Positions 24,203-41,346 of a DNA stretch of 64,000 nt are shown piece by piece. Location: NCBI RefSeq assembly GCF_000620785.1, contig NZ_JIAI01000004.1, positions 1-64,000 of the forward strand, in the 5' to 3' direction. This DNA comes from Actinospineispora acaciae DSM 45401. GTDB taxonomy: Bacteria > Actinomycetota > Actinomycetes > Mycobacteriales > Pseudonocardiaceae. Under the pieces are notes generated by a model, which saw nothing but the letters and a program-made list of their open reading frames with translations, did not search any database and was not told where the DNA came from. Every line of letters begins with the position of its first letter. The stretch's first letter is position 1. The translations under genes and the position numbers were made by a program.

Positions 24203-24921
24203 GGCCTGGCCCGTTGCTCGTGCTCGGTGAGCATCCCGAGAAACACGTCCTCCAGGTTCCGCCCGCCGCACGTGCAGTGCGGCAGCGCCGCCGTGTCGAG
24301 CTCGGTCAGCAGCCGCCCCTGGTGGATCATGCCGACGCGGGTTGCCACCCGGGCGACCTCGGCCAGGATGTGGCTGGAGACCAGCACCGTGACGCCCTCG
24401 GTGGCGAGGTCGACCAGCAGCGCGCGCAACCAGACGATCCCCGCCGGATCCAGGCCGTTGCCGGGCTCGTCGAGGACCAGCAGGTCGGGTCGGTGCACCA
24501 GCGCCTTCGCCAGGCCCAGCCGCTGGGCACTGCCGAGGGACAGCTCCCCAGCCCGGCGCGACGAGTACCGCTCCAGCCCTACCAACCCGAGGATCGCATC
24601 AACGGCTCGCCGGTCACGCACACCGCGCAACCGGGCGGCGAGCAGCACGTTCTCGCGCGTGGTCAGATCGGGGTAGCAGTGCGCGCCGTCGACCAGATGA
24701 CCGACCTTGCGCCACTCGGGCCGGGATCGACCGAACAGCCTCGCCTCGCCCGAGGTCGGCCGGGTCATGCCGAGCAGCATCCGAATAGCGGTGGACTTCC
24801 CGGCGCCGTTCACACCGAGGAACCCGTAGATCTCGCCCGACTCGACCCGCAGGTCAAGGTCCGCGACGGCCAGCGTGCGCCGGTAACGCTTGGTCAGTCC
24901 CCGGGTCTCGATCACACTCAT
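24199..24921 (-). CDS. ABC transporter ATP-binding protein (drug/peptide exporter class)
   Basis: A 240-residue ATPase with Walker A GVNGAGKSTAIRMLLG, signature ELSLGSAQRLGLAKAL, Walker B LLVLDEPGNGLDP and switch VLVSSHILAEV. The signature has LSLGSAQ in place of LSGGQ, a variation known in CcmA/BcrA-like exporters. It lies in an operon TetR-ATPase-permease with 4-bp overlaps on both sides. Confidence 0.9.
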   Translation of the reverse strand: MSVIETRGLTKRYRRTLAVADLDLRVESGEIYGFLGVNGAGKSTAIRMLLGMTRPTSGEARLFGRSRPEWRKVGHLVDGAHCYPDLTTRENVLLAARLRGVRDRRAVDAILGLVGLERYSSRRAGELSLGSAQRLGLAKALVHRPDLLVLDEPGNGLDPAGIVWLRALLVDLATEGVTVLVSSHILAEVARVATRVGMIHQGRLLTELDTAALPHCTCGGRNLEDVFLGMLTEHEQRARP

Positions 24922-25472
24922 CGGTCGATCACCTCCAGGGCCGTCTCGATCAGCTCACGCACGTCCGCGCGGCCGCCCTCGGCGGCCCACCGCAGCAACG
25001 CCACGCCCACCGCCCCGAGGCACGCGGCGGCCGCGACCTCGACTTCGAACGGATCCTCACCCGCCAGCGCGGCGACGATCGCTCGCCCGGTGGCGTACTG
25101 GTTCTCCCACAGACGAGCGCGCAGCGCCGGGGTGTCCATGATCAGGCGCACCCTGGCCAACGTCAGCTCGGCGGCCTCACCGGACAGCTCACCCCAGCCC
25201 ATCAACAGGCCCTCGCCGATCCTGCGCGTCAACGGGCCTTCCGAAGGACCGGCGGCGATACGCTCGGCGATCACTTCGTCGTAACCATCGGACATGACCA
25301 GGTCTTCCTTCGTGGGGAAATGTCGGAAGACCGTCATCGCCGAGACCTCGGCCGCCTCGGCCACCTCCGCGACCGTCACACCGTGAAAGCCGCGCTCCAG
25401 GAACAACCGCAGGGCTTCGCGTTGAATCTTGGCCCGCGTCCGGTCGCGCTTGAGCTGGCGCAACCCCACCAT
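24918..25472 (-). CDS. TetR-family transcriptional regulator of an ABC exporter
   Basis: A 184-residue regulator with HTH LRLFLERGFHGVTVAEVAEAAEVSAMTVFRHFPTKEDLV (about 20-60). Its stop overlaps the ATPase start (ATGA), so it heads the exporter operon and should autoregulate it. Two tandem dyads lie immediately upstream, the nearer one ending at the base before the codon triplet region of the ATG, with no ribosome site between. A leaderless start is implied. It is inferred to respond to the compound exported by the pump. Confidence 0.88.
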   Translation of the reverse strand: MVGLRQLKRDRTRAKIQREALRLFLERGFHGVTVAEVAEAAEVSAMTVFRHFPTKEDLVMSDGYDEVIAERIAAGPSEGPLTRRIGEGLLMGWGELSGEAAELTLARVRLIMDTPALRARLWENQYATGRAIVAALAGEDPFEVEVAAAACLGAVGVALLRWAAEGGRADVRELIETALEVIDR

Positions 25473-28788: not shown

Positions 28789-29451
28789 TCACGGCAGCGC
28801 GCGAAGGTCCACGACCCCCTTCACCACGAGGTACAGGCCCAGGACTCCGCAGAACACGACCACGATGGTTCGCTGGTGCCGCCTGGCCCAGGCGGTGCCT
28901 CGTTCGAGGAGGTCACGGGACACGCTCGGGCGGTAGACCGACATCACGAGCGCCACGATCGCGAGGCTGAACCACAGGGCGTTGTAGACGAGCACCTGCA
29001 GGATGCCGTTGACCGGTCCCGACGCGGTCCCGATGATGGCGTTGAGCGCGGCGAGGTAGACCAGGCCGGGCAGGTGGGTCAGGACTCCGGCCAGGGCCGC
29101 GACGGGCGGGGTCAGGTGCCGTAGCCGACGCTGCATCCAGGACTCGTCAGCGGGGTCGGCGGCGCGCCGGTGCACCCGCCCGGTCCAGGCGCCGGCGGCG
29201 TAGCCCAGGGCCGCGGCGCCGATGACGATGTTGAGCAGCGCGCGGCCGGCCGTCGCCGTGCTCGACGAGCTGTGGCCCTGCAACGCCAGTACCGCGAGCG
29301 CGCCGATGGTCAGGCTGAACGCGAGGCCGGCGAGGATGTAGGCGACCAGCAGTCGTTGCGGGCGGTGGGTGGACAGCATCGCGTAGACGGCCGCCGCGCT
29401 GGAGGGGCGGACCACGGTGGTCAGCGCGAGGACGAGCGCTTCGGGGCTCAC
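28789..29451 (-). CDS. GAP-family membrane protein (Sap/PF11139-like)
   Basis: A 220-residue protein with six predicted helices in the GAP (Sap, sulfolipid-1-addressing) pattern: VLALTTVVRPSSAAAVYAMLSTHRPQRLLVAYILAGLAFSLTIGALAVLAL, a central basic loop DESWMQRRLRHLTPP, then LTHLPGLVYLAALNAI. Mycobacterial members help move glycolipids across the membrane. GTG 29451 is 21 bp after the short SHOCT stop, so it may share an operon with the fragments upstream. Confidence 0.78.
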   Translation of the reverse strand: MSPEALVLALTTVVRPSSAAAVYAMLSTHRPQRLLVAYILAGLAFSLTIGALAVLALQGHSSSSTATAGRALLNIVIGAAALGYAAGAWTGRVHRRAADPADESWMQRRLRHLTPPVAALAGVLTHLPGLVYLAALNAIIGTASGPVNGILQVLVYNALWFSLAIVALVMSVYRPSVSRDLLERGTAWARRHQRTIVVVFCGVLGLYLVVKGVVDLRALP

Positions 29452-29736: not shown

Positions 29737-29810
29737 CGCGTTGCCCGGCTCCGTTCGTTCCGCTCGTTCCTGCCCTCGGGCAGGCTGGGAACCGGACGCG
29801 CGGGCCGGCC

Positions 29811-29827
29811 TCATCCCCGGCGGATGA
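29811..29827. promoter_or_regulatory. Island palindrome, copy 1
   Basis: TCATCCCCGGCGGATGA: perfect 6-bp arms TCATCC/GGATGA with a 5-bp spacer. It lies upstream of the DUF6325 fragment and downstream of a 56-residue membrane-peptide gene. Confidence 0.7.
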
Positions 29828-29832
29828 CCCGG

Positions 29833-30003
29833 TCAGCCGGACCGCGCGTCGGTCGTGGAGGTTCCCGGCCGGGCGAGGAACTCGATCACGGCAAGCGCGA
29901 CGAGCAGCCCGGTGGCGATGAGCAGGATCGCCCCCCGCGGTCCGCGCGCGCACCAGCTGATCGGCCGGGGCGACGGCGATCGTGGGATGCACCCGAGGGA
30001 CAT
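29833..30003 (-). CDS. Small single-helix membrane protein
   Basis: A 56-residue frame from ATG 30003 to the TGA at 29833-29835: MSLGCIPRSPSPRPISWCAR, then one long hydrophobic helix GAILLIATGLLVALAVIEFLA and a short polar tail. GAGG lies about 9 bp upstream. It sits 13 bp after the gene at 30017-30475 and probably shares its message. Family unknown; the clean helix with flanking arginines argues it is real. Confidence 0.5.
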   Translation of the reverse strand: MSLGCIPRSPSPRPISWCARGPRGAILLIATGLLVALAVIEFLARPGTSTTDARSG

Positions 30004-30016
30004 CGCACGGACCTCG

Positions 30017-30475
30017 TCAGCGTTCGAGCTCCCCGCCGTGCACGATGATCGCGTAGATCACGACCACGTCGAGCGCGATGATGATCGTGGACCACACCGG
30101 GTAGGCGGGGAGGAACACCAGGTTCGCGATCGCGCTCAGGCCGGCCACGAGAACGCCGACCACCCGTGCCGCGGTGTTCCCGGTCAGCAGCCCGAACCCC
30201 ACCAGCAGGCCGACCACGCCGAGCGCGAAGTGCAGCCAGCCCCAGGCGTTGTAGTCCACGTTCACGACCAGCCCGTTCTGGCGCACCACGTAGAAGCCGT
30301 TGTTGAACAGGGCCACCAGCCCTTCGATCAGCTGAAAGACACCAAGAATGATCAACATGGTGCCGGCGAAGGCGACCCAGCCGGCCCAACCGGTGACCGC
30401 GCGCGCCGATCTCTCGCTCGAGGGACGGTTCGCGGCTCCGGCGGGACCGCTGTGGGCGGTCGATGCATCGGTCAT
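30017..30475 (-). CDS. Four-helix membrane protein (DUF7144-like)
   Basis: A 152-residue protein with a polar N-terminus (about 1-35) and four helices: WVAFAGTMLIILGVFQLIEGLVALF, then YNAWGWLHFALGVVGLLVGFGLL, RVVGVLVAGLSAIANLVFL and STIIIALDVVVIYAIIVHG. The GWLHFALG motif between helices 2 and 3 is typical of a family common in actinobacterial stress clusters; function unknown. An AGGAG site precedes ATG 30475, so the upstream 10 codons are not used. Confidence 0.75.
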   Translation of the reverse strand: MTDASTAHSGPAGAANRPSSERSARAVTGWAGWVAFAGTMLIILGVFQLIEGLVALFNNGFYVVRQNGLVVNVDYNAWGWLHFALGVVGLLVGFGLLTGNTAARVVGVLVAGLSAIANLVFLPAYPVWSTIIIALDVVVIYAIIVHGGELER

Positions 30476-30597
30476 GACAGATCTCCTGCGGTCGGGGATG
30501 GCCACCTTGGGCGAGGTCGAACAGCCACGCGGTCGACGTCGCTAACAGATGTCCCTCCGAGTGGACGGTCGTGCTCGGCGGGTGAGGGCCCAGGCCG

Positions 30598-31083
30598 TCA
30601 TGCGGCGAACGCGGTCCGCAGGGCGTTCTCCTGCTCCTGGGACAGGTTCGTGGAGAGCAGCTGGGGCTTCTGCTCGGCGAAGGCCTCGCTGACCTTGTCC
30701 ATGACGGCCTCGGAGGTCATCACGAACAGGGCGGACGTGCCCGGGGTGACCTCGTCGCGGGTTCGCTTGATGAAGTCGTCGTCGATGCCGACGTCGCCCA
30801 GCGCTCCGGTGATCGCTCCGGTGGCCGCGCCGAGCGCGGCTCCGATCAGCGGGATGAAGAAGAGCAGGCCGAAGAGCATGCCCCAGAACATGCCGCCCAG
30901 AGCGCCGGCACCGGCCAGGTTGTGCAGCTGGCGGGTCTTCGGGCGCTTGGCGTCGGCGGGCCAGGACACCGTTGCCGCGTCGTGCACCGTGATCAGCTGC
31001 TGTTTCGACAGGGCTTCTAGCGTTGTGACGGCGTCGTCGGCGCCGGTGGCGCTGTCGAACTTCCAGACGGTGAGGGTCGCCAT
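30598..31083 (-). CDS. DUF1269 family membrane protein
   Basis: A 161-residue protein of the DUF1269 family. It has the N-terminal domain ATLTVWKFDSATGADDAVTTLEALSKQQLI, a Gly/Ala-rich hydrophobic middle (GGMFWGMLFGLLFFIPLIGAALGAATGAITGALGDVGI) and the C-terminal block VTPGTSALFVMTSEAVMDKV. A GAAGGAGG site precedes the ATG. Members are often stress-induced; the mechanism is unknown. Copy 2 of the island palindrome lies 62 bp upstream. Confidence 0.85.
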   Translation of the reverse strand: MATLTVWKFDSATGADDAVTTLEALSKQQLITVHDAATVSWPADAKRPKTRQLHNLAGAGALGGMFWGMLFGLLFFIPLIGAALGAATGAITGALGDVGIDDDFIKRTRDEVTPGTSALFVMTSEAVMDKVSEAFAEQKPQLLSTNLSQEQENALRTAFAA

Positions 31084-31144
31084 CGTTCCTCCTTCGGTGC
31101 GAGTCGTCGGTGAGCCAGCGTGTGCGGTGGCGGCGCGAGGCGCG

Positions 31145-31161
31145 TCATCCGTCGCGGGTGA
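31145..31161. promoter_or_regulatory. Island palindrome, copy 2
   Basis: TCATCCGTCGCGGGTGA, one mismatch between arms. It is 62 bp upstream of the DUF1269 start and just beyond the DUF389 stop. Confidence 0.6.
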
Positions 31162-31167
31162 CCCGGC

Positions 31168-32166
31168 TCAGGTGGCGGGCCTGGTGACGTCCAGCTCCCG
31201 GGTTCCGCCGACGACGAGCGACAGGCGCGCAGGCACCTCGGCCAGTCCCGCCTGGTCGAGCGCGCGACGCAGCGAGGGCGCGTCCGCGCCGGGTGGCGGG
31301 CCGACGGCCGCGACGCGCAGCACCCCCCGTTGCATCGACACCTGCACCACCTGCCAGGACCGTGCCCTGGCCCACCGGTCCGCCACCGGCTGCGCGGTGG
31401 CGACGATCGCCTGGTCGCGGAAGACCTGGTAGCTGCCGAGCCCGAGCGGGACGGCCACGACGAGCACGAGCAGCGCGACCACGACGATCGTTCGTGCGCG
31501 CAGGCGCCCGACCGGTTGCCCGGCGCCGAGGGCGGCGGCCCGCACCCGGTAACCGATCAGCACGACCGTGCCGGTGGCGATGATCGCGGTCACGTTCGTG
31601 GCGAACAGAAGCAGCGCACCCGCCGCCTGCGCGGGGGCACCGGACTCCAGCGTCAGCCCGACCACGGACAGCGGTGGGACGAGCGAGATCGCGATCGCGA
31701 CCCCGGGCAGGGCGTCGGAGATGTCCGAGCGCACCAGGGCGAAGGCTCCGACGGCGCCGGTCGCGAGCGCGGAGACCAGGTCGATCAGCTTCGGGTCGAC
31801 CCGGCCGGCGACCTGTGTGTTGGTGTCGGCGACGATCGGCCCGGGGACCAGCAGGCCGAGCGCGTAGCCGAGGGCGACGACCACAACGGCACCGGCGACG
31901 ACGAGCACCGCGCTCCTGACGACCCGGCGACGATCGGCGAGGACGAGCCCGAGCGCGGTACCCAGGATCGGCGTCATCAAGGGCGCGACGATCATCGCCC
32001 CGATCACGGTGGCGACCGAGTCGGCCACCACCCCGGCGCCGGCGATCACCGCGGCCAGCACGAGCAGCGCCCAGAAGGCGGAGCGCTGCCGAGGCTGGTC
32101 GAGGAACAGCGCGCCGGCCATGCGCTCGATGTCGGCGCCGGTGACGCCCGAAGCCGTGGTCATCAT
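31168..32166 (-). CDS. DUF389 family membrane protein
   Basis: A 332-residue protein. The first 200 residues are a DUF389 membrane domain with DSVATVIGAMIVAPLMTPILGTALG, DISDALPGVAIAISLVPPLSVVGL and ATNVTAIIATGTVVLIGYR; the SLVPPLSVVG motif is diagnostic. The C-terminal soluble part (about 235-332) has a repeated helix-strand pattern. Function is unknown. ATG 32166/32163 is used; the frame is open further but without similarity. It is divergent from the SulP gene, sharing palindrome copy 3. Confidence 0.85.
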   Translation of the reverse strand: MMTTASGVTGADIERMAGALFLDQPRQRSAFWALLVLAAVIAGAGVVADSVATVIGAMIVAPLMTPILGTALGLVLADRRRVVRSAVLVVAGAVVVVALGYALGLLVPGPIVADTNTQVAGRVDPKLIDLVSALATGAVGAFALVRSDISDALPGVAIAISLVPPLSVVGLTLESGAPAQAAGALLLFATNVTAIIATGTVVLIGYRVRAAALGAGQPVGRLRARTIVVVALLVLVVAVPLGLGSYQVFRDQAIVATAQPVADRWARARSWQVVQVSMQRGVLRVAAVGPPPGADAPSLRRALDQAGLAEVPARLSLVVGGTRELDVTRPAT

Positions 32167-32264
32167 CGCGGCACCGGCGCGCGTGTGCGCGCATCGATGC
32201 GCGGAGCCGGTGGCGGGTGGCCTGCCATGGTCGCCCAGCGTGAGCGCCGCCGCCGGGTTCCTCC

Positions 32265-32281
32265 TCACCCGTGGGGGATGA
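32265..32281. promoter_or_regulatory. Island palindrome, copy 3
   Basis: TCACCCGTGGGGGATGA, between the divergent DUF389 (99 bp) and SulP (67 bp) starts. Confidence 0.7.
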
Positions 32282-32347
32282 CGTGCCGGCGCGGCGGTGA
32301 CGACGACAGTGACGGTATACGGCCGGCGGGTGCGGAAGGGGAGATCG

Positions 32348-34045
32348 ATGCGGATGCTCGCCTCGCTCGGCGAGCTCCGGACGGCCTGGCGACGCGAGAC
32401 GCTGGGCGCGGACGCGCGCGCGGGGGTCGTGCTCGGGGTGGAGAGCGTGCCGGACGGCCTGGCGAGCGGGCTGTTGGCCGGGGTCAACCCCGTCTCGGGC
32501 CTGTACGCGTACCTGTTCGGGATGGTCGGCGGCGCGCTGTTCACCGGTTCGACGTACATGGCCGTGCAGTCCACCGGCGCGATGGCGGTCGTGGTGGCCG
32601 ACGTCGACCTGGGTTCGCGCGCCGACCCCGAGCGGTCGCTGTACACGCTTGCGCTGGTCACCGGGGTGGTGATGATCGTGGCAGGGGTGGCGCGGCTGGG
32701 TCGGTTGCTGCGGTTCGTGTCCACCTCGGTGATGACGGGGTTCATCACCGCCGTCGGTGTCAACATCGTTCTCGGTCAGCTCGGGAACTTCACCGGGTAC
32801 CAGGCGCCCGGCGGGGGCCGGCTCGGCCAGGCGCTGGGGCTGCTGCTCGCGCTGGGTCGTGTCGATCCCGCCTCGACGGCGGTCGGCGTCGTCACCGTCG
32901 TGCTCATCCTGGTGTTGCGGCGCACGCGGTTGCGGTCGCTCGGGTTGGTCGTCGCCGTGGCGGTGGGCTCAGGGCTCGGCATGCTGTTCGGTGCGTTGGG
33001 TGCGCCGGTGGCGCGGCTCGACGGGATCGTCGCGATACCCCGGTCGCTTCCGCTGCCGGTGCTGCCGGCGTTCGCGGAGATCCCGGGGCTGCTGGTCCCA
33101 GGGCTGTCGCTCGCGTTCGTGGGCCTGGTGCAGGGCGCGGGGGTGTCGGCGGGGGTGCCGAACCCGGACGGGTCGCGCCCCGACCCGTCGCGGGACTTCG
33201 TCGGCCAGGGCGCCGGCAACATCGCCTCGGCCGTGTTCCGAGGGATGCCGGTGGGCGGTTCGATGTCGGCAAGCTCGCTGCTCGCCGAGGCCGGCGCGCG
33301 GACCCGGCTCGCGCCGCTGTTCGCCGGGATCGTGATGGGCGCGGTCATCCTCCTGCTCGGCGGCGTCATCGGATACGTCGCCATGCCAGCGCTCGCCGGC
33401 CTGCTGATCGTGGTCGGCGCCGGTTCGATCCGGCCGGCCCAGGCGCTCTCGGTGGCCCGTACCGGCGCGGTCCAGCTCACCGTCATGGCCACCACGTTCG
33501 TGCTGACGCTGGTCGTCCCGTTGCAGTACGCCGTGCTGGTCGGGATCGGGCTCTCGATCATCCTGCACGTCGTGCGGCAGTCCAGCCGGATCAGGATGAG
33601 ACAGCTTCAGCTCCGCGGCGGGAGGCGGGTGCGCGAGACGGCGCCACCCGAGGAGGTGCCGGGCGGGCAGGTGATCGTGCTCCAGCCCTACGGCAGCATC
33701 TTCTTCGCCGCCGCTCCCGCGCTCGAAGCACAGCTGCCCTCGGTGCGCGACGGGTCGACGGGCAGCGCCGTGATCCTTCGGTTGCGCGGAGTCGACGACG
33801 CCGGCGCGACCTTCATCGACGTCCTCACCAGGTTCGCGGCCGCCCTCGCACGCTCCGGATCGAGGCTGATGGTGGTGACCGACAACCCCCGGATCCGCCG
33901 GCAACTGGAGGTGACCGGCGCCCTGGGAGCCCTCGGGGAGGACAACTTCTACGCCGGTGACGAATGGGTGGGCCGGGCGTTGCGCCGGGCCTACCGGGAC
34001 GCGACCGGCTGGGTGCGCGAGCACGAAGCGGGCGGTCAGCGGTGA
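32348..34045 (+). CDS. SulP-family anion transporter with STAS domain (1)
   Basis: A 565-residue SLC26/SulP protein. The membrane domain (about 1-420) begins VVLGVESVPDGLASGLLAGVNPVSGLYAYLFG and includes STYMAVQSTGAMAVVVADV and QGAGNIASAVFRGMPVGGSMSASSLLAEAG. The C-terminal STAS domain (about 440-550) has AVILRLRGVDDAGATFIDVL. It may carry sulfate, bicarbonate or another anion; the PVGGSMSAS loop differs from GGMVVNGSLSKTA in the other copy, suggesting different substrates. ATG 32348 follows GAAGGGGAG. Its stop is 10 bp from the converging SulP gene. Confidence 0.88.
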   Translation: MRMLASLGELRTAWRRETLGADARAGVVLGVESVPDGLASGLLAGVNPVSGLYAYLFGMVGGALFTGSTYMAVQSTGAMAVVVADVDLGSRADPERSLYTLALVTGVVMIVAGVARLGRLLRFVSTSVMTGFITAVGVNIVLGQLGNFTGYQAPGGGRLGQALGLLLALGRVDPASTAVGVVTVVLILVLRRTRLRSLGLVVAVAVGSGLGMLFGALGAPVARLDGIVAIPRSLPLPVLPAFAEIPGLLVPGLSLAFVGLVQGAGVSAGVPNPDGSRPDPSRDFVGQGAGNIASAVFRGMPVGGSMSASSLLAEAGARTRLAPLFAGIVMGAVILLLGGVIGYVAMPALAGLLIVVGAGSIRPAQALSVARTGAVQLTVMATTFVLTLVVPLQYAVLVGIGLSIILHVVRQSSRIRMRQLQLRGGRRVRETAPPEEVPGGQVIVLQPYGSIFFAAAPALEAQLPSVRDGSTGSAVILRLRGVDDAGATFIDVLTRFAAALARSGSRLMVVTDNPRIRRQLEVTGALGALGEDNFYAGDEWVGRALRRAYRDATGWVREHEAGGQR

Positions 34046-34055
34046 CGGCGCGCGC

Positions 34056-35762
34056 TCAGTCCGGCGCCGGCCGCTGGAGGACCGTGGCCACGGCCTCATC
34101 CAGCGTGGAACAGGCCAGGATGGGTCCGCCGGCCAGGGCGAGCACGTCGCGCACCTGACCGACGTCGCCGGCGATGGCCAGCCGGATGCCGTCGCGCTCG
34201 AGGTCGGTCCGCAGCCGCTGAAGCATCGCCGCGGCCGTGACGTCGACGAACGGCACCGTCCGCGCGTCGAGCACCACCGCGCGGACAGTTCCCTCGCCGG
34301 CCAACGCACGCAGCCGCTCGCGGACGTGGTCGGCGTTGGCGAAGAACAGCCCGCTCTCCACCCGCGCCACGATCACGCCCGGCGCCCCGGCACCCTCCGG
34401 GTTGCGGGCGAGGTCGACCCACGTCCCCGGCGTGGCCGGCGCCCGGCCGAGCACCGCCACGTACGGACGCGACACCCGGTACAGCAGGAGAAGAAGCGAC
34501 ACCGTGATGCCGATGAACAACCCGGGCAGGGTGTCGAACACGAGCACGCCCAGCAGCGCCGCGACGGCGGCGGCGAAGTCCGCGCGGGCCGCCGGGCCGT
34601 AGATGCTGCCCAGCCGGTGGGTCCAGATCCCGTACAGCGTCCGCAGCGCCGCCAGGTCGACGAGCTCGATGACCGCCACGATGACGATGGCCGCGAGCAC
34701 GGCCTCGGGCAGCCGCTCGAACAGGCCGGTCAGGAACAGCAGCGTCAACAGGGTCAGCGCCGCCACCGTCAGCCCGGAGACCTGGGAGCGGGCGCCCGCG
34801 CCGCCGTTGACGGCCGTCTTGGACAGGCTGCCGTTGACGACCATCCCCGACGACAGGCCGGCACCGACGTTGGCGGCGCCGAGCCCCAGCAGCTCACGGT
34901 TGGCGTCGATGTCGTACCCGGCCTTCGCGGCGTAGGTCTTGGCGGCGCCCAGTCCCTCCGCGAACCCGACCAGCAGCACGCCCAGTGCGGGGCCGACCAG
35001 CCCGAGATAGTCGCCGAGCCCGATCCCGGCCGGCAGGCCGAACGAGGGCAGGCCCCGCTCGATCGGCCCGACGATCGCCACCCCCCGGTCGTCGAGGCCG
35101 AACAGGATGACGGCCAGCACCCCGAGCACCACCACGACCAGGGATCCGGGCACCAGCGGGACCACCTTGCGCAGCATCGCCAGCACCGCCAGGGCGGCCA
35201 GCCCGACCCCGAGCGTGGCGAGGCTTGCCCCGCCCAGGTGAGCCACGAGCCCCCCGACCTGCTCGAAGAAGTTCCCGGACGCCTTCTCGACCCCGAAGAG
35301 CTTGGGGAGCTGGCCGGCGATGATCGTCAGCGCCAACCCGATGATGAATCCCTTCAGCACCGGCTCGGAGATCAACGACGCGATGAACCCGAGCCGCAGC
35401 AGGCCCGCGAGGACGCCGACGACCCCGGCGACGAGGGCGAGCGTGACGGTGAAGGCGGCGTAGCGGGCGGTACCGGCCCCGGCGAGGCCGGCCACGATCG
35501 CGGCGGACAGCGCCGCCGTGGCCGACATGGGTCCGACGACCAGGTGCCGGGAGGACCCGATGAGGGCGTACAGGAGCAGGGACGCGACCGCCGCGTAGAG
35601 GCCGACCACCGGAGAGACGCCCGCGATGGTGGCGTAGGCCAGTGACTCGGGCACCAGCACGGCCCAGACCGTCAGGCCCGCCACCAGATCGGCGCGCAAC
35701 CACGACGGCCGGTAGTCCCGCAACGTCGCCATCAGCCCGGGCGCGGGCGGACCTGGCCGCAC
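34056..35762 (-). CDS. SulP-family anion transporter with STAS domain (2)
   Basis: A 568-residue SulP protein. LVAGLTVWAVLVPESLAYATIAGVSPVVGLYAAV is the conserved first block, followed by SSRHLVVGPMSATAALSAAIVA, then GLGAANVGAGLSSGMVVNGSLSKTAVN. A STAS domain (about 450-560) contains RAVVLDARTVPFVDVTAAAMLQRL. GTG 35762 has GGGAGG 7 bp upstream; ATG 35732 is an alternative. It is likely to import sulfate or bicarbonate. It is divergent from the AI-2E-family gene, with palindrome copy 4 between. Confidence 0.9.
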   Translation of the reverse strand: MRPGPPAPGLMATLRDYRPSWLRADLVAGLTVWAVLVPESLAYATIAGVSPVVGLYAAVASLLLYALIGSSRHLVVGPMSATAALSAAIVAGLAGAGTARYAAFTVTLALVAGVVGVLAGLLRLGFIASLISEPVLKGFIIGLALTIIAGQLPKLFGVEKASGNFFEQVGGLVAHLGGASLATLGVGLAALAVLAMLRKVVPLVPGSLVVVVLGVLAVILFGLDDRGVAIVGPIERGLPSFGLPAGIGLGDYLGLVGPALGVLLVGFAEGLGAAKTYAAKAGYDIDANRELLGLGAANVGAGLSSGMVVNGSLSKTAVNGGAGARSQVSGLTVAALTLLTLLFLTGLFERLPEAVLAAIVIVAVIELVDLAALRTLYGIWTHRLGSIYGPAARADFAAAVAALLGVLVFDTLPGLFIGITVSLLLLLYRVSRPYVAVLGRAPATPGTWVDLARNPEGAGAPGVIVARVESGLFFANADHVRERLRALAGEGTVRAVVLDARTVPFVDVTAAAMLQRLRTDLERDGIRLAIAGDVGQVRDVLALAGGPILACSTLDEAVATVLQRPAPD

Positions 35763-35830
35763 GGCAACCTCCCCTCCGCCGCTTCCGATCGCCTCGGACT
35801 CATCGGAGCCGAGCGCACCTCATCCGTGCC

Positions 35831-35847
35831 TCACCCGGGAGGGATGA
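35831..35847. promoter_or_regulatory. Island palindrome, copy 4
   Basis: TCACCCGGGAGGGATGA, 38 bp before the AI-2E-family start and 69 bp before the divergent SulP start. Confidence 0.7.
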
Positions 35848-35884
35848 TGCGTCGGAGGTGCCCACGGCGGCAGCATGCCGGTTC

Positions 35885-37015
35885 ATGGCGACCGTGACCG
35901 AACCGCCGAAGCGTCGCTGGCCCCTCCCCCGTGGCCTGATCGTGCTGCTCGCCCTGGCGGCCATGGTCATCGTCGCCGCCGGGCTGCGCGCGTTCGCGGA
36001 CATCCTCGGGCCGGTGTTCCTGGCGCTGATACTCACCGTCGCCGTGCATCCGCTGATCACCCGCCTACGGCGCCGGGGCGCCCCGACCTGGCTGGCGGTC
36101 ACGGTGACCTTGCTGGCCACCTTCGTGATCGTGCTCGGGCTCGCCGCGGCGCTGGCGCTGTCGGTCGCGCAGCTGGCGACCCTGTTGCCCGAGTACCAGG
36201 ACCGGTTCGCCGCGCTCGTCCAGGACGCCGTGGCCTGGCTGCGCGGCCTGGGCGTGGGCACCGAGCAGGTGCAGGCCGTGCTCAAGAAGGTGGACTTCGG
36301 AGCGGTGGCGGGAGTGCTGGGCAGCATGCTCGCGGGCCTGGCCGGCGCGTTCTCCAACCTGGTGTTCCTGCTCGCCGTCCTGCTGTTCATGGGCCTGGAC
36401 GCCGCCGGTTTCCCGTCGCGCCTCACGGCCGTCGCGCGCTCACGTCCGGATGTCGCCTCGGCGTTCACCTCGTTCGCGCGGGGAACCCGCAGCTACCTGG
36501 CGGTGTCGACCGTCTTCGGACTGATCGTCGCGGTGTTCGACGGGGTCGCGCTGGGGTTGATGGACATACCGCTGCCGGTGCTGTGGGCGCTGCTGGCGTT
36601 CATCACCAACTACATCCCGAACATCGGCTTCCTCATCGGGCTCGTGCCACCCGCCCTGCTCGGGCTGCTCGAGGGCGGGCCCCGGCTCATGCTGCTCGTG
36701 ATCGTGGTCTACTGCGTCATCAACTTCGTGATCCAGTCGGTGATCCAGCCGAAGTTCGTCGGCGACGCCGTGGACCTGTCGCTGACCCTGACCTTCCTGT
36801 CGCTGGTGGTGTGGTCGTGGCTCATCGGGCCGCTCGGCGCGCTGCTGGCCATCCCGCTGACCCTGCTCACCAAGGCCCTGCTGCTCGACATCGACCCGCA
36901 GACGCGCTGGATGACGTCCATGGTGACGATGGGCGCACCGGCACCCCCCGCGCCCGTCCCGCTCCAGCGCACCGGTCCCGACCAGGACGCGCCGGCCAGG
37001 ACCGCGCCGCACTGA
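35885..37015 (+). CDS. AI-2E family transporter-like membrane protein
   Basis: A 376-residue protein with eight predicted helices in the PF01594 pattern: LRAFADILGPVFLALILTVAVHPLITRLRRRGAPTWLAVTVTLLATF, a long soluble loop (about 110-170), then ALLAFITNYIPNIGFLIGLVPPALLGLLEGG and QPKFVGDAVDLSLTLTFLSLVVWSWLIGPLGALLAIPLTLL. Family members include AI-2 exporters and Na+/H+ antiporters. A Pro/Ala tail follows. The stop is 7 bp from the converging BASS gene. Confidence 0.87.
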   Translation: MATVTEPPKRRWPLPRGLIVLLALAAMVIVAAGLRAFADILGPVFLALILTVAVHPLITRLRRRGAPTWLAVTVTLLATFVIVLGLAAALALSVAQLATLLPEYQDRFAALVQDAVAWLRGLGVGTEQVQAVLKKVDFGAVAGVLGSMLAGLAGAFSNLVFLLAVLLFMGLDAAGFPSRLTAVARSRPDVASAFTSFARGTRSYLAVSTVFGLIVAVFDGVALGLMDIPLPVLWALLAFITNYIPNIGFLIGLVPPALLGLLEGGPRLMLLVIVVYCVINFVIQSVIQPKFVGDAVDLSLTLTFLSLVVWSWLIGPLGALLAIPLTLLTKALLLDIDPQTRWMTSMVTMGAPAPPAPVPLQRTGPDQDAPARTAPH

Positions 37016-37021
37016 CCGCCG

Positions 37022-38008
37022 TCACCGCTCAGGCCCGGCAACGACCCCCGAACCCGGTGGAGCGGCGCCGAGCTCGGTGTGCCCCACGGCATCGGAATCG
37101 GAATCGGAATCGGCATCGGCCCCGGCCCGGTCGCTCGCGCGGTCGGGCTCCGCGCCACGCCGGCGAGCGAGCCAGGACGCGACCGGTATCTCGACGGCCA
37201 GCCCCACCAGCAGGATGCCGGTGAGGCCGGCGAGGATCGCAGGGTCGTTGCCGAACCCGATCGCGACCGCGGCGAACGCGGGCCTGGCGTTGCGGGTCGG
37301 CGCGATCAACGCGACCGTCGTACGGGTCGTGGCGCCACCGCGGGCAAGACACCACCCGGCCACGGCGCCGACGACGGTGAACACCGCGGCGGCCGCCAGG
37401 GTCCGGGAACCGATCAGATCGACGATCTGCTCCCAGCTGCCGAGCACACCGAACGCGAGCACACCGACAAAGGCGAGGTTGGAGCCACGGGCGACCGGCG
37501 GCATCCAGCCCGCCGCGGTCTCCGGCGCCCAGGCCCGCACGGCCAGCCCCACCGCGAACGGCACCAGCTGCAGGACGGCGACACCCGCGATCAGCCTGCC
37601 GATCGGAATGCTGATGTCCGCGCCGAGGTCCGCCCAGCCGATGAGCAGGTTCGCCGTGATCGGGAACGTCACGCTTCCCATGGCGGCGAGGACGACCTGA
37701 AGCACCGAGCCGGTGACCACGTCCCCCTTCTGGATCATCGCCAGCTTCGCCCCGAACGGCGCACCCGGCGAGGAGGCCACCAGCACCAGCGCGACGACAC
37801 CGGCGGTGGACAACGCGAACACCCGCCCCACCACCAGCCCGAGCAGCGGCACCACCACCAGGTTCGCGACCAGCACCAACCCCACCAGGACGCCGTTGCG
37901 CAGCACCCCGAGCAGCGCCGGAACGCTGGTGCGCAACCCGGCCGAGAGCATCGTGGCCACCACGAACACCACAAGCACCGTGTTCAACAAGGCGGTGAGA
38001 ACGTCCAC
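37022..38008 (-). CDS. BASS/SBF-family transporter (bile acid:sodium symporter-like)
   Basis: A 328-residue protein with about nine or ten helices. LVVGRVFALSTAGVVALVLVASSPGAPFGAKLAMIQKGDVVTGSVLQVVLAAMGSVTFPI carries the conserved SPGA...Na-binding region, and LIAPTRNARPAFAAVAIGFGNDPAI the second. The acidic C-tail (about 290-315) is encoded by a hexamer repeat giving (Asp-Ser)n. The substrate could be a carboxylate or sulfonate; the alkylsulfatase gene is divergent and shares the promoter gap, so an amphiphilic product is a tempting but unproven idea. Copy 5 of the palindrome is 37 bp upstream. Confidence 0.82.
   Translation of the reverse strand: MDVLTALLNTVLVVFVVATMLSAGLRTSVPALLGVLRNGVLVGLVLVANLVVVPLLGLVVGRVFALSTAGVVALVLVASSPGAPFGAKLAMIQKGDVVTGSVLQVVLAAMGSVTFPITANLLIGWADLGADISIPIGRLIAGVAVLQLVPFAVGLAVRAWAPETAAGWMPPVARGSNLAFVGVLAFGVLGSWEQIVDLIGSRTLAAAAVFTVVGAVAGWCLARGGATTRTTVALIAPTRNARPAFAAVAIGFGNDPAILAGLTGILLVGLAVEIPVASWLARRRGAEPDRASDRAGADADSDSDSDAVGHTELGAAPPGSGVVAGPER
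37091..37120. repeat. Hexanucleotide tandem repeat
   Basis: Three ATCGGA units followed by two ATCGGC units, encoding alternating Asp and Ser/Ala in the BASS transporter tail. This is a potential slippage site that keeps the reading frame. Confidence 0.85.
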
Positions 38009-38044
38009 AGCCGCTCAGCCTGGCCGGCCCACGATCGCGTGACC

Positions 38045-38061
38045 TCATACCCAAGGAATGA
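38045..38061. promoter_or_regulatory. Island palindrome, copy 5
   Basis: TCATACCCAAGGAATGA, the most divergent copy, 37 bp upstream of the BASS start. Confidence 0.5.
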
Positions 38062-38196
38062 CCCGGCCCGGCGGGCGGTCGGTGTCCGTCGAAGCCTGCC
38101 TGATGTCGCCGTCTCACAACACGTCTGCCGCGGTCGCCTACCGGTGCGCTCAGCCCCGAAGCAGGCCGGGGTCAGGCCCAGCGAGCAGCAACGCTT

Positions 38197-38213
38197 TCAC
38201 CCCCAGCGGATGA
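38197..38213. promoter_or_regulatory. Island palindrome, copy 6
   Basis: TCACCCCCAGCGGATGA, 36 bp upstream of the alkylsulfatase start. Confidence 0.65.
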
Positions 38214-38248
38214 TGAGGATCCGTCCAGGGGGCCGCGAGGCTGGTTGC

Positions 38249-40138
38249 ATGACAGCTCCGAAGTACGCGGCTACGGCGATCGTCCAACAGCAGGAGGAGT
38301 TGCTCAAGCTCCTGCCCTTCTCCGATATGCAGGACTTCGACGATGCCAGGCGAGGCCTGGTCGCCCCGATCGAGTCACCCGTCGTCGACGAGGACGGGAA
38401 GGTCCTGTGGGACAACTCGACCTATTCGTTCCTCGAGGGTGACGCCCCGGACAGCGTGAACCCGAGCCTGTGGCGCCAGTCGAAGCTCGCCGCGATCGGA
38501 GGGCTGTTCGAGGTCACCGAGGGGATCTACCAGGTCCGCGGCATGGACCTGTCGAACACGTCCTTCGTGGAGGGCCACGAGGGTGTCGTCGTGATCGACA
38601 CCCTGCTGTCGGCGCAGACGGGCGCGGCGGCGCTGGACCTTTACCGCAGGCACCGCGGTGACCGGCCGGTCAAGGCGGTTGTCTACACGCACTCGCACGC
38701 CGATCACTTCGGCGGGGTGAAGGGCTTCGTGACGCAGGACGAGGTCGACGCGGGGACCGTGAAGATCTTCGCTCCCGACGGGTTCATCGAGGAGGCGGTC
38801 TCGGAGAACGTATACGCGGGGACCGCGATGAACCGCCGGGCCGGGTACATGTACGGCGCGGCATTGGCCCGAGGCCCGCGCGGTCAGGTCGGCGCGGGCC
38901 TCGGGCAGACGCTGTCCACCGGCACGGTCTCGCTGATCGCGCCGACGGACGTCATCACCACGACGGGGCACGTCGAGACCGTCGACGGCGTGCGGATGGT
39001 CTTCCAGATGGCTCCGGGCACCGAGGCGCCGGCGGAGATGCTCATCTACCTGCCGGACTTCAAGGCACTCTGCGCCGCCGAGGACGCCACGCACAACCTG
39101 CACAACCTGCTGACCCTGCGCGGCGCGGTCGTGCGCGACCCGCACGCCTGGGCCCACTACCTCACCGAGACGATCGACCTGTTCGGAGGCGACGCCGACG
39201 TCGTCTTCGCCTCCCACCACTGGCCGACCTGGGGCACGGACCGCGTTGTCGAGTTCCTGTCGACGCAGCGGGACCTGTACGCCTACCTGCACGACCAGAC
39301 GCTGCGCATGATGAACAAGGGGTTGGTCGGTCCGGAGATCGCCGAAGAGATCATCCTGCCCGCCACGCTGGAGAACGCCTGGAACGCCCGCGGCTACTAC
39401 GGCTCGGTCAGCCACAACGTCAAAGCCATCTACCAGCGCTACCTCGGCTGGTTCGACGGCAACCCGGCCCACCTCTGGGAGCACCCGCCCGTGGAGAAGG
39501 CCAAGCGCTACGTCGATTTCATGGGCGGCGCCGACGCCGTCGTCGAGAAGGCGCGAACCGCGTACGACGCAGGCGACTACCGGTGGGTCGCCGAGGTCCT
39601 CAACCACGTCGTGTTCGCCCAGCCCGACCACCCCGCCGGTCGCGAACTGCTCGCCGACACCTACGAGCAGCTCGGGTACGGCTCGGAGAACGGCACGTGG
39701 CGCACCTTCTACCTGTCCGGCGCGACCGAGCTGCGCGACGGCCCGTTCGGGACGCCCACGGAGACGACCGCACCCGACGTGATCGGCCAGCTCACTCCGT
39801 CGATGTTGTTCGACGCCATCGCCATACAGGTCGACGGGCCACGGGCGTGGGACGAGAACCTCAGCATCGACGTGGTGCTCACCGACGTGCACGAGCGGTA
39901 CCGCCTTCGCCTCGCCAACGGCGTGTTGACCTACAGCCCTCGCCCGCAGAAGGGCGACGCGGACGCGGTGCTCACCACGACACGACGTGCGCTACCCGCG
40001 CTCGCGGCGGGTGGCCTGAGCGCCGAAGGCCTCGCCACAGCGGACATCGCGCTGACCGGTGACGCCTCGGTCCTCGCACGCCTCGCAGGCGTCTTGGACC
40101 CGGGCGACAAAACCTTCGCCATCGTCACTCCGGACTGA
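38249..40138 (+). CDS. Alkylsulfatase, metallo-beta-lactamase fold (SdsA1/BDS1-like)
   Basis: A 629-residue enzyme hydrolysing primary alkyl sulfates (such as SDS) to alcohol and sulfate. The MBL domain (about 100-380) has the zinc motif THSHADHFGG, then the AEDATHNLHNLLTLRGA and FASHHWPTWGTDR blocks. A dimerisation segment (about 385-520) has NAWNARGYYGSVSHNVKAIYQRYLGWFDGNP. A SCP2-like C-terminal domain (about 525-629) has IQVDGPRAWDENLSIDVVLTD, thought to bind the alkyl chain. No signal peptide is seen, so it is cytosolic or exported by another route. It is divergent from the BASS transporter. Confidence 0.92.
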   Translation: MTAPKYAATAIVQQQEELLKLLPFSDMQDFDDARRGLVAPIESPVVDEDGKVLWDNSTYSFLEGDAPDSVNPSLWRQSKLAAIGGLFEVTEGIYQVRGMDLSNTSFVEGHEGVVVIDTLLSAQTGAAALDLYRRHRGDRPVKAVVYTHSHADHFGGVKGFVTQDEVDAGTVKIFAPDGFIEEAVSENVYAGTAMNRRAGYMYGAALARGPRGQVGAGLGQTLSTGTVSLIAPTDVITTTGHVETVDGVRMVFQMAPGTEAPAEMLIYLPDFKALCAAEDATHNLHNLLTLRGAVVRDPHAWAHYLTETIDLFGGDADVVFASHHWPTWGTDRVVEFLSTQRDLYAYLHDQTLRMMNKGLVGPEIAEEIILPATLENAWNARGYYGSVSHNVKAIYQRYLGWFDGNPAHLWEHPPVEKAKRYVDFMGGADAVVEKARTAYDAGDYRWVAEVLNHVVFAQPDHPAGRELLADTYEQLGYGSENGTWRTFYLSGATELRDGPFGTPTETTAPDVIGQLTPSMLFDAIAIQVDGPRAWDENLSIDVVLTDVHERYRLRLANGVLTYSPRPQKGDADAVLTTTRRALPALAAGGLSAEGLATADIALTGDASVLARLAGVLDPGDKTFAIVTPD

Positions 40139-40308
40139 GTCATCCCGCCGCCGGAACGGCCTGACACGAACGCGACACGACGTGCGCCCGCGCCGACCCA
40201 GCGCCCTGACTCGTCCTGAGCCGGGGTTCGGACTCGACGAACTCCGGTGGTCGATCGGCCGTGACCAAGATGTCAGTGTGGGGATCGGAACGCGTGTCCC
40301 CCGACCGG

Positions 40309-40950
40309 TCAGCTCGCCGGGGTCGTGGCGGGCCTGCCGAACGCGCCGATTGCCGTCACGGCTCCGTGCACGATCATCACGATGCCGAGCACCCACGCCA
40401 GGGTGACCGCGCTGATGACCGGCATGGACAGCACGACGACGCCCGCGATGAGCCCCACCACACCGCCGAGGATCGCCCAGCCCCTGCCCCGTTGGCTGCG
40501 TCCCGCGACCCCGGCCGCGAGTTCCATCACGCCGTTCACCAACCAGAACAGTCCGACCACGATCGCCAGGAACACCGCGGTCGCGACCGGTGAGCGCAGG
40601 CACATCACCCCGGCGATGATCGCCAGGATGCCCACGAGCACGCCGATGACCTTCGTCGCGGTCGAGGTGTCCGGGACCGCGAGCACCCAGACGGTGCGGA
40701 ACAGTCCCAGGATGAGCAGCTGGATCCCGAAGATCGCCGCCAGGACCAGCGCGGTCACACCCGGCCAGGCAACGGCGAGGATGCCGGCGATGACGGCAAG
40801 CACCCCGTAGGCGACCGGCCACCATCTCGACTCACCGACGTCGGCCATGACATCCGCGACGTCGCGTCGACCGGGCGTTCCTGACGCGCGATGCTGGTGC
40901 GTCGCCGACGGCCCGGGTGTCTGTGCGGCCGCTCCCGTCCCCTCGGTCAT
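40309..40950 (-). CDS. HdeD-like acid-resistance membrane protein (DUF308)
   Basis: A 213-residue protein. A polar N-terminus (about 1-40) is followed by six helices in the HdeD pattern, three repeats of a two-helix DUF308 unit: SRWWPVAYGVLAVIAGILAVAWPGVTALVL, then VGILAIIAGVMCLRSPVAT and GWAILGGVVGLIAGVVVLSMP. GGGAGG precedes ATG 40950. E. coli HdeD supports acid resistance at high density. Copy 7 of the palindrome lies 74 bp upstream. Confidence 0.85.
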   Translation of the reverse strand: MTEGTGAAAQTPGPSATHQHRASGTPGRRDVADVMADVGESRWWPVAYGVLAVIAGILAVAWPGVTALVLAAIFGIQLLILGLFRTVWVLAVPDTSTATKVIGVLVGILAIIAGVMCLRSPVATAVFLAIVVGLFWLVNGVMELAAGVAGRSQRGRGWAILGGVVGLIAGVVVLSMPVISAVTLAWVLGIVMIVHGAVTAIGAFGRPATTPAS

Positions 40951-41023
40951 GCTGCCTCCCCGCGCGTCGAAGTGCGTGTGCACGATGCGGTGGCCAGGGT
41001 GAAGGCCTCCCGAGCCCGCCGCC

Positions 41024-41040
41024 TCACCCGGCGCGGATGA
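41024..41040. promoter_or_regulatory. Island palindrome, copy 7
   Basis: TCACCCGGCGCGGATGA, 74 bp upstream of the HdeD-like start. Confidence 0.65.
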
Positions 41041-41060
41041 TCCTTGGGTGCGCGTCCGGC

Positions 41061-41261
41061 TCAGTCGGGGAGCCGGTGCAGGTCGATGAGCTCCAGCCCG
41101 AGGTTGCGGAACCGCGCGAGGATGCCGTCGAGGTGCGCACGATCCTGAACCGCCCCGTAGAGCGTGGTGCCGCGCGGGTCGACCATGGAGACCTTCAGCT
41201 CAGGGAACGCGGCCCTTGCGGTCATGGACAGGGGGCGCGCCAACGTGAACTCATACCGCAC
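41061..41261 (-). CDS. Small conserved protein of unknown function
   Basis: A 66-residue protein: VRYEFTLARPLSMTARAAF near the start, then a centre with TTLYGAVQDRAHLDGILARF and the ending GLELIDLHRLPD. I have seen this compact alpha-beta pattern repeatedly in actinobacterial stress clusters, without a known function. GTG 41261 has AGGAGG 8 bp upstream, which decides the start although the frame is open much further. Copy 8 of the palindrome is 69 bp upstream. Confidence 0.65.
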   Translation of the reverse strand: MRYEFTLARPLSMTARAAFPELKVSMVDPRGTTLYGAVQDRAHLDGILARFRNLGLELIDLHRLPD

Positions 41262-41329
41262 GAGCTCGACCTCCTGGACACGGCACCACCTGCTCAGCAC
41301 CAGGATGTAATCGCCGCCGGCGCCGGTCG

Positions 41330-41346
41330 TCACACGGGAGGGATGA
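41330..41346. promoter_or_regulatory. Island palindrome, copy 8
   Basis: TCACACGGGAGGGATGA, 69 bp upstream of the 66-residue protein gene and just beyond the LuxR-type gene stop. Confidence 0.6.

What the first reader, a model, noticed from the sequence alone, without database searches (positions are those of the whole stretch)
29811..41346. Eight-copy 17-bp palindrome marks a compact stress-island regulon
Reading the intergenic spaces from 29.8 to 41.3 kb shows the same 17-bp dyad eight times: 29811, 31145, 32265, 35831, 38045, 38197, 41024 and 41330. The pattern is TCAYMC-N5-GGRTGA, for example TCACCCGTGGGGGATGA, TCACCCGGGAGGGATGA and TCACCCGGCGCGGATGA. Seven copies lie 36-75 bp upstream of at least one start, in front of DUF1269, SulP (both), AI-2E, BASS, alkylsulfatase, HdeD-like and a 66-residue protein. 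Several sit in divergent promoters. I did not find comparable copies in the other promoters of this window, though some half-matches exist. I do not recognise the motif as any named actinobacterial box. The regulator could be the LuxR-type protein at 41350-43941 or one outside the window.
Basis: partly seen in the sequence, partly recalled or inferred. Interest (0 to 1): 0.9.

Follow-up and report, generated by a model that had tools for sequence, protein, structure and literature searches.

The report
MalT-type switch for a transporter island
A short mirror-image DNA site repeated in front of most genes of one stretch of a Pseudonocardia-type genome is very probably the docking site of a large MalT-like activator encoded in the same stretch; the same site and kind of regulator have been published in another actinobacterium, so this is a clear new case of a known kind that turns out to be widespread.

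Summary
The exact palindrome occurs at nine places in the 9.93-Mb genome, seven of them in this 11.5-kb island; one more copy with a mismatch lies at 26579. All nine island copies have a -10-like nAnnnT hexamer 23-24 bases behind the dyad in at least one direction, so the dyad sits where a -35 box would be. In relatives the motif is fixed at spacing 5, mostly intergenic, and about 65-fold denser near genes for large MalT-like LuxR regulators (LAL) than elsewhere. Its presence follows the LAL tree. The site is not new: Droste et al. 2020 (PMC7567727) described TCATCC-5nt-GGATGA as the MalT activator site of a 51-gene region in Actinoplanes, with malT deletion and overexpression. Added here: the Pseudonocardia island and its content, spread over many actinobacterial families, the shared promoter geometry, and a conserved 66-residue protein found, in this set, only in LAL-bearing genomes. 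Binding, inducer and physiological role are untested; 'stress' is inference.

The parts
   Evidence: weak sub-cut-off Pfam match TM7S3_TM198 (E 0.0042)
29811..29827 (-). dyad copy; -10-like CAGCCT at 29782-29787; faces a 45-residue ORF and then SfLAP (28789-29451 -)
31145..31161 (-). dyad copy; -10-like CACGCT at 31117-31122; faces DUF1269 (start 62 bases from the dyad), followed by DUF7144
32265..32281 (.). dyad copy in a divergent promoter; -10-like hexamers on both sides (32305-32310 + for SulP, 32237-32242 - for DUF389)
35831..35847 (+). dyad copy; -10-like CAGCAT at 35871-35876; faces AI-2E transporter (ATG 38 bases from the dyad); no -10 on the SulP side
38045..38061 (-). dyad copy (TCATTC...GTATGA on -); -10-like CAGGCT at 38017-38022; faces the SBF/BASS transporter (GTG 37 bases from the dyad)
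38197..38213 (+). dyad copy; -10-like GAGGCT at 38237-38242; faces the alkylsulfatase (ATG 36 bases from the dyad)
41024..41040 (-). dyad copy; -10-like CACCCT at 40996-41001; faces the DUF308/HdeD-like gene (GTG 41 bases from the dyad)
41330..41346 (-). dyad copy (TCATCC...GTGTGA on -); -10-like CATCCT at 41302-41307; faces the 66-residue gene; lies 3' of the LAL gene
28789..29451 (-). SfLAP-family membrane protein
   Evidence: Pfam PF11139
30017..30475 (-). DUF7144 protein; the family most often found behind the dyad in relatives (17 of 100 proteins)
   Evidence: PF23636
30598..31083 (-). DUF1269 protein
   Evidence: PF06897
31168..32166 (-). DUF389 protein, 332 residues
   Evidence: PF04087, (in the 532-residue frame); start chosen
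32348..34045 (+). SulP-family transporter with STAS domain
   Evidence: PF00916, PF01740, (scanned from 32297)
34056..35732 (-). second SulP-family transporter with STAS domain; control by the dyad doubtful
   Evidence: PF00916, PF01740
35885..37015 (+). AI-2E family transporter
   Evidence: PF01594
37022..38008 (-). SBF/BASS-type sodium symporter
   Evidence: PF01758
38249..40138 (+). alkylsulfatase (metallo-beta-lactamase fold, dimerisation and C-terminal domains)
   Evidence: PF14863, PF14864, PF00753
40309..40983 (-). DUF308/HdeD-like membrane protein
   Evidence: PF03729; NCBIfam HdeD, below its cut-off
41061..41261 (-). 66-residue protein of an unnamed conserved family, predicted ferredoxin-like fold, found in the set only in LAL-bearing genomes
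41350..43941 (-). LAL (MalT-like STAND-LuxR) regulator: AAA ATPase, MalT-like TPR, GerE helix-turn-helix; candidate activator (start may be 43980)

Best explanation
The dyad TCAYCC-N5-GGRTGA is the operator of the MalT-like LAL regulator encoded at 41350-43941. The regulator's GerE domain binds the two inverted GGRTGA half-sites as a dimer (inferred), just upstream of promoters that have a -10-like nAnnnT element 23-24 bases behind the dyad and no evident -35 box. It recruits RNA polymerase there, as the genetics of Actinoplanes MalT suggests. When a ligand switches the STAND ATPase on (inferred from MalT), the island is expressed together: DUF1269-DUF7144, DUF389/SulP, AI-2E, SBF transporter, alkylsulfatase, HdeD-like, the 66-residue protein, and possibly SfLAP and the 26.7-kb ORF. 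Shown here: the sites, their geometry, their near-restriction to the island, and their linkage with LAL genes in relatives. Inferred: binding, activation, ligand, function.
For: Seven of nine exact genome sites are here. All 9 island sites have a correctly spaced -10; P about 5e-10 against the island's intergenic background. In 80 regions around LAL hits there are 83 copies at spacing 5 and at most 2 at any other spacing from 0 to 15, reversed control 0; 80 of 89 copies (6 window copies included) are intergenic although 85% of bases are coding. nAnnnT at offset 23 or 24 in 72 of 112 gene-facing sites, at most 6 at any other offset up to 60; window left out, 66 of 103 facing versus 12 of 63 not facing a gene. 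Density near LAL is 56.7 per Mb, 65-fold that in the rest of the same 47 genomes; the 64 genomes with LAL average 6.3 copies, the 36 without 1.25. The motif label needs 15 changes on the LAL tree against 33.4 on shuffled labels, 0 of 500 as low; one subclade has it in 1 of 16 proteins, its sister in 36 of 46. Among named genomes, 49 of 78 LAL loci hold it (105 copies, 100 intergenic). The LAL matches E. coli MalT (PDB 8bob, E 2e-31; NCBIfam MalT, E 5e-62); recognition helices read SVNTIKTHQRSIY and AATTIKTHIRNLY. Same site, same -35 position and genetic evidence in Actinoplanes (PMC7567727).
Against: No binding or expression data for this genome. The window LAL is only about 30-43% identical to its relatives and scores 210 bits against the MalT model cut-off of 537. 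Starting from motif clusters instead of LAL genes, only 8 of 18 clusters have a LAL in their 20-kb region and 10 have none, three of these ten having a listed LAL within 15 kb of a copy. 39 of 80 LAL regions have no exact copy. The 36 genomes without a LAL hit still hold on average 1.25 copies. The LAL gene itself has no exact dyad in front of it. One SulP gene lacks the -10. The ORF at 26674 has 3 homologues in the fetched loci, none dyad-led. The gene caller was home-made.
Confidence: 0.85

Rival explanations
1. The dyad is bound by another regulator, encoded elsewhere or near the island, and LAL is only a frequent neighbour.
For: 10 of 18 motif clusters lack a LAL inside their 20-kb region. 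In the own genome only 9 of 91 first-look LAL candidates were scored, so other LAL-like genes may have been missed. A TetR gene (24918-25472) with ABC-transporter genes lies just outside the island.
Against: In the ten clusters without LAL inside, among the 25 of 202 families that were listed, no transcription-regulator family was seen in more than 2 of 150 proteins scanned (GntR 2; HU-type Bac_DNA_binding 3). Among the proteins scanned between 26.6 and 44 kb only the LAL has a regulator domain. Motif presence follows the LAL tree. malT deletion lowers transcription of the Actinoplanes region (PMC7567727).
Confidence: 0.1
2. LAL binds the dyad as a repressor, or the dyad works through a dedicated sigma factor.
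For: Some LAL proteins repress, e.g. SCO6993 (PMC9628970, passages read). A fixed distance to the -10 would also fit a sigma factor.
Against: The dyad is symmetric and serves both directions at 32265, which does not fit a directional -35. Actinoplanes MalT activates. Between dyad and -10 the A+T fraction stays at 0.12-0.35 at every position, so there is no common AT-rich -35 hexamer.
Confidence: 0.06
3. The copies are a dispersed repeat or terminators without regulatory meaning.
For: Inverted repeats in intergenic DNA can be terminators or mobile repeats (general knowledge).
Against: The spacer sequence is free, the spacing is fixed at 5, copies face gene starts, and a -10 follows at a fixed distance. 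By eye no run of T follows the window copies. The genome holds only two exact copies outside the island. Rfam at gathering threshold finds nothing in 26-45 kb.
Confidence: 0.01

Closest known systems
MalT regulon (MRLGR) of Actinoplanes sp. SE50/110, Droste et al. 2020, PMC7567727
   Same: Palindrome TCATCC-5nt-GGATGA; dyad overlapping the -35 region, about 34 nt from the start of transcription; large local region of poorly annotated genes; MalT-like LAL gene inside it; no maltose genes. A locus of Pseudosporangium ferrugineum, one of the species compared in that paper, carries 3 exact copies beside LAL, DUF7144, DUF1269 and AI-2E genes (L181).
   Different: Other family (Pseudonocardia); arms are a mixture of TCATCC and TCACCC (in relatives position 4 is C in 67% and T in 33%); content is SulP, AI-2E, SBF, alkylsulfatase, HdeD, DUF389; the LAL is divergent (31% identity to the P. 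ferrugineum one). No expression data.
E. coli MalT and the maltose regulon
   Same: STAND-ATPase/TPR/GerE protein; half-site GGRTGA resembles the MalT box GGA(T/G)GA; box near -35 (as cited in PMC7567727 and PMC9628970).
   Different: Here an inverted repeat with fixed spacing 5, not direct repeats; no maltose gene found; identity low.
SCO6993 of Streptomyces coelicolor (LAL repressor), PMC9628970
   Same: LAL protein binding short palindromes in promoters.
   Different: Sites have other sequences; negative regulator of antibiotic activator genes.

Membership tests
MalT-like LAL (large ATP-binding LuxR) regulators | AAA/STAND ATPase, MalT-like TPR and C-terminal GerE domain in one protein of about 900 residues | tested here: met
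   Pfam: GerE and AAA_22 above cut-off; TPR_MalT (E 3e-10) and AAA_16 (E 4e-7) somewhat below their curated cut-offs. MalT NTPase of PDB 8bob E 2e-31.
MalT itself (NCBIfam NF003420 equivalog) | score above the curated cut-off of 537 bits | tested here: not met
   210 bits, E 5.3e-62: MalT-like, not MalT.
Actinoplanes-type MalT regulon (MRLGR) | palindrome TCATCC-5nt-GGATGA at several promoters of one region | tested here: met
   in the relaxed form TCAYCC. Only 29811 has both arms TCATCC; 31145, 32265, 35831, 38197 and 41024 have one TCATCC and one TCACCC arm; 26579, 38045 and 41330 differ further.
Actinoplanes-type MalT regulon (MRLGR) | dyad overlaps the -35 region, about 34 nt from the transcription start | tested here: met
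   by sequence only: -10-like hexamer at 23-24 bases in 9 of 9 sites; no mapped starts
Actinoplanes-type MalT regulon (MRLGR) | LAL gene inside the region | tested here: met
   41350-43941
Actinoplanes-type MalT regulon (MRLGR) | transcription lost when the LAL gene is deleted; higher on maltose | not testable with these tools
   needs the organism
Actinoplanes-type MalT regulon (MRLGR) | shared gene content | tested here: inconclusive
   DUF7144, DUF1269, AI-2E and LAL shared with L181 and other Micromonosporaceae loci; the paper's supplementary gene lists could not be read here
E. coli maltose regulon | direct repeats of the MalT box and maltose genes as targets | tested here: not met
   direct GGRTGA repeats: at most 8 at any spacing 0-15 in the 80 regions; no maltose gene among the island proteins scanned

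The most novel reading that the evidence does not exclude
The window belongs to an actinobacteria-wide class of MalT-like regulons in which LAL paralogues with a common inverted-repeat code control mobile modules of membrane transporters and small unknown proteins (DUF7144, DUF1269, DUF389, AI-2E, SulP, HdeD, DUF2252), together with a dedicated small ACT-like protein (the 66-residue family) that tunes the LAL, much as MalY, Aes and MalK (the latter two recalled) do for MalT. MalT would then have left sugar metabolism and become a general environmental switch in this phylum.
Probability: 0.4. Interest if true: 0.68.

Novelty: new member of a known kind. Interest (0 to 1): 0.5.

Why it matters
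It turns a single published case into a rule that can be used: given a LAL gene of the right subclade, part of its regulon can be read off the genome from the dyad plus the -10 at 23-24 bases. That gives targets for many uncharacterised LAL regulators and places several proteins of unknown function (DUF7144, DUF1269, DUF389, DUF2252 and the 66-residue family) in one regulon, which makes their role testable.

Tried and rejected
Direct and everted repeats of the half-site and other spacings showed no comparable signal (everted at most 6, direct at most 8, inverted at other spacings at most 2). Rfam at gathering threshold found nothing in 26-45 kb. A look for regulators other than LAL in motif clusters gave no common family among the 25 listed (proteins of 100-900 residues only). 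The pattern with a -10 was written for offsets 22-23 only and misses the offset-24 promoters; I use only its rows for G000. In some searches the DUF389 coordinates were out of frame, so their '0 homologs' and '0 families' for DUF389 are invalid; one search repeats the homolog search with 31168-32166 and finds two homologs, one of them dyad-led. Labels of L134 (cyanobacterium) and L178 (Frankia) contradict the record titles (Rhodococcus, Nocardia) and were ignored. Exact copy C16:76029 (L009) was not followed further. Literature: six searches; of the papers listed, PMC7567727 is the only one that I saw to describe the site; PMC11205506, PMC10427625 and the others were seen in listings only. Of PMC7567727 I read the abstract, parts 2 and 3 of 6 of the text and the Discussion; of PMC9628970 passages only. 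The DosR-type dormancy regulon was considered from memory and dropped because the recalled box differs; not tested.
Full report
WHERE IT IS. The window lies in a 9.93-Mb genome of 93 contigs; the window has 71.5% G+C.

THE OBSERVATION. The eight copies exist. The exact pattern TCAYMCN5GGRTGA is found at nine places of the whole genome, seven of them between 29811 and 41346; the same pattern read backwards is found nowhere. With one mismatch there are 78 forward matches against 20 for the control, so single-mismatch copies elsewhere are partly chance. A ninth island copy, one mismatch, is at 26579. This is mainly a local regulon.

PROMOTER GEOMETRY. Aligning 112 gene-facing sites (9 of them from the window) showed a -10-like nAnnnT hexamer starting 23 (45 of 112) or 24 (27 of 112) bases behind the dyad, with at most 6 at any other offset up to 60. 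Without the window: 42 and 24 of 103 gene-facing sites, against 7 and 5 of 63 that do not face a gene. In the named set it is 42 and 31 of 123. In the window each of the nine copies has it in at least one direction, and 32265 has it in both. Against the intergenic background of the island (4.7% per direction) nine of nine has a probability of about 5e-10; the offsets had been found on the set that included the window rows. With a -10 there, transcription should start about 35 bases behind the dyad, which agrees with the 34.4 +/- 1.0 given for Actinoplanes (PMC7567727). AI-2E, SBF, alkylsulfatase and HdeD-like start codons lie 36-41 bases behind the dyad, so these messages may be nearly leaderless (inference).

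RELATIVES. TCAYCCN5GGRTGA occurs in 78 of 100 genomes of the order, the own genome included (446 copies summed; 15 for the reversed control by my count of the table). Homologues of the window LAL at E up to 1e-20 occur in 64 of these 100 (at most nine candidates per genome were scored and the list of places was cut, so this is a lower bound). I fetched 80 regions of up to 20 kb around listed LAL hits, in rank order, neighbouring hits merged, lower-ranked ones left out: 83 copies at spacing 5 in 41 regions; other spacings 0-15 give 0-2; reversed control 0; direct and everted repeats reach at most 8 and 6. 80 of 89 copies (six of them in the window) are intergenic while 85% of bases are coding by my gene caller. 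Density near LAL is 56.7 per Mb, 65-fold that in the rest of those 47 genomes. The 64 genomes with LAL have on average 6.3 copies (5 have none), the 36 without 1.25 (17 have none); within the genus 6.4 (46 genomes) against 2.2 (14), p 0.0018. Results against: 39 of 80 regions have no exact copy, some of them short contigs. Of 18 motif clusters picked without regard to LAL from the site lists of seven genomes (not all listed clusters; those of G085 and G094 and a second one on G093:C11 were left out), 8 have a LAL inside the 20-kb region and 10 have not; three of the ten (L200, L209, L212) have a listed LAL within 15 kb of a copy.

WHICH REGULATOR. On a tree of 102 full-length LAL proteins (E. 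coli MalT included, unlabelled) the label 'dyad within 8.5 kb' needs 15 changes, shuffled labels 33.4 on average, none of 500 as low; tandem copies and close relatives inflate this, and the 8.5-kb limit was my choice. One subclade, half of whose members have the recognition helix HSTVKTH, carries the label in 1 of 16 proteins; its sister in 36 of 46. Recognition helices with HSTV: 0 of 8, but one of the eight (L041) has a copy at 9.0 kb, just over the limit. The window LAL and its nearest relative (L100) both carry the label. The rival that another regulator is the binder has no good candidate: among 150 proteins (100-900 residues) of ten clusters without LAL inside, the 25 listed families of 202 show no transcription-regulator family in more than two. 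A TetR gene stands at 24918-25472, outside the island.

NAMED GENOMES. A profile of 12 LAL proteins brought 78 loci of named organisms (the best 80 of 507 were kept, and several are the same Pseudonocardia contigs as above). 49 of 78 hold the dyad: 105 copies, 100 intergenic, at most 3 at any other spacing, reversed control 0. They include Pseudonocardia, Amycolatopsis, Kibdelosporangium, Modestobacter, Rhodococcus, Jiangella, Occultella, Ornithinimicrobium, Actinoplanes, Dactylosporangium, Catenulispora and members of Nitriliruptorales and Thermoleophilales. The seven Solirubrobacterales loci and the one Streptomyces locus had none.

WHAT IS CONTROLLED. Of 100 proteins directly behind a dyad in relatives, 17 are DUF7144, 11 diacylglycerol-kinase-like, 6 MFS, 5 DUF1269, 5 NUDIX, 4 AI-2E, 4 Rieske, 4 GerE, 3 DUF308, 2 SulP. 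Counting homologues of window proteins among 2475 distinct genes of the fetched loci (242 dyad-led): DUF7144 34 of 85 dyad-led, DUF1269 11 of 42, HdeD 6 of 19, SulP 6 of 26, DUF2252 6 of 27, AI-2E 7 of 56, 66-residue protein 5 of 66, SfLAP 1 of 6, alkylsulfatase 1 of 5, SBF 0 of 2, DUF389 1 of 2, the ORF at 26674 0 of 3. So part of the island recurs behind dyads; SBF and the 26.7-kb ORF do not. Whether these genes serve stress, ion balance or nutrient uptake is not known.

PRECEDENT. Droste et al. 2020 (PMC7567727; abstract, parts 2-3 of 6 and Discussion read) found the palindrome TCATCC-5nt-GGATGA at 17 transcription starts of a 51-gene region in Actinoplanes, overlapping the -35 region, and showed by deletion and overexpression that the LAL protein MalT activates most of it; maltose genes were not affected. 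They found the motif in four other Micromonosporaceae, among them P. ferrugineum, whose locus here (L181) holds 3 dyads, LAL, DUF7144, DUF1269 and AI-2E. They note the likeness to the E. coli MalT box. In six literature searches I saw no report of the site outside Micromonosporaceae; most subscription papers and all preprints are missing from that library, and apart from the two papers named I saw listings only.

SIDE RESULT. The 66-residue protein beside the LAL belongs to a family without Pfam or NCBIfam match. It is found in 49 of 100 genomes, all 49 among the 64 with a LAL hit and none among the 36 without; 57 of 129 places lie within 1 kb and 106 within 10 kb of a listed LAL, 23 farther away or on contigs without a listed LAL. 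AlphaFold2 gives beta-alpha-beta-beta-alpha-beta with mean pLDDT 89.9; Foldseek matches are ferredoxin-like folds including ACT domains, none significant (best E 0.013). A partner or sensor role is a guess. It also sits beside LAL genes of the subclade without the dyad.

VERDICT. New member of a known kind, with a useful generalisation.

Noticed in passing
window 41061-41261 (-); alignment A4: 66-residue protein family without Pfam or NCBIfam match, predicted ferredoxin/ACT-like, present in 49 of the 64 genomes with a LAL hit and 0 of the 36 without, mostly near a LAL gene; possible LAL partner.
   Followed up: partly
L105 13079-15583, L106 13089-15701, L102 5109-7694, L081 10451-12982: LAL paralogues whose recognition helix has decayed (PIDEAQARLRMIY and similar; GerE E 0.021 in L105), several of them beside intact ones; they may have lost DNA binding and modulate the intact copy.
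   Followed up: no
window 14039-17059 (+): Molybdopterin oxidoreductase in two ORFs of one frame split by a TGA in ...ARVUHGPTV..., a context recalled from selenocysteine formate dehydrogenases; the genome has a tRNA-Sec candidate at 75 bits, over the family cut-off. Probably one gene.
   Followed up: partly
L049, L133, L158, L176 and others: In some relatives the dyad stands in front of LAL genes themselves (11 of 202 LAL homologues dyad-led), suggesting autoregulation there; the window LAL has no exact dyad upstream.
   Followed up: no
G000:C5:112343-112359 (L008 1501-1517): One of two exact dyads outside the island, with a spaced -10 on the minus strand and 11 bases before the predicted start of a 496-residue minus-strand gene, a start that would lie upstream of the -10 and may be misplaced; possible distant target.
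   Followed up: partly
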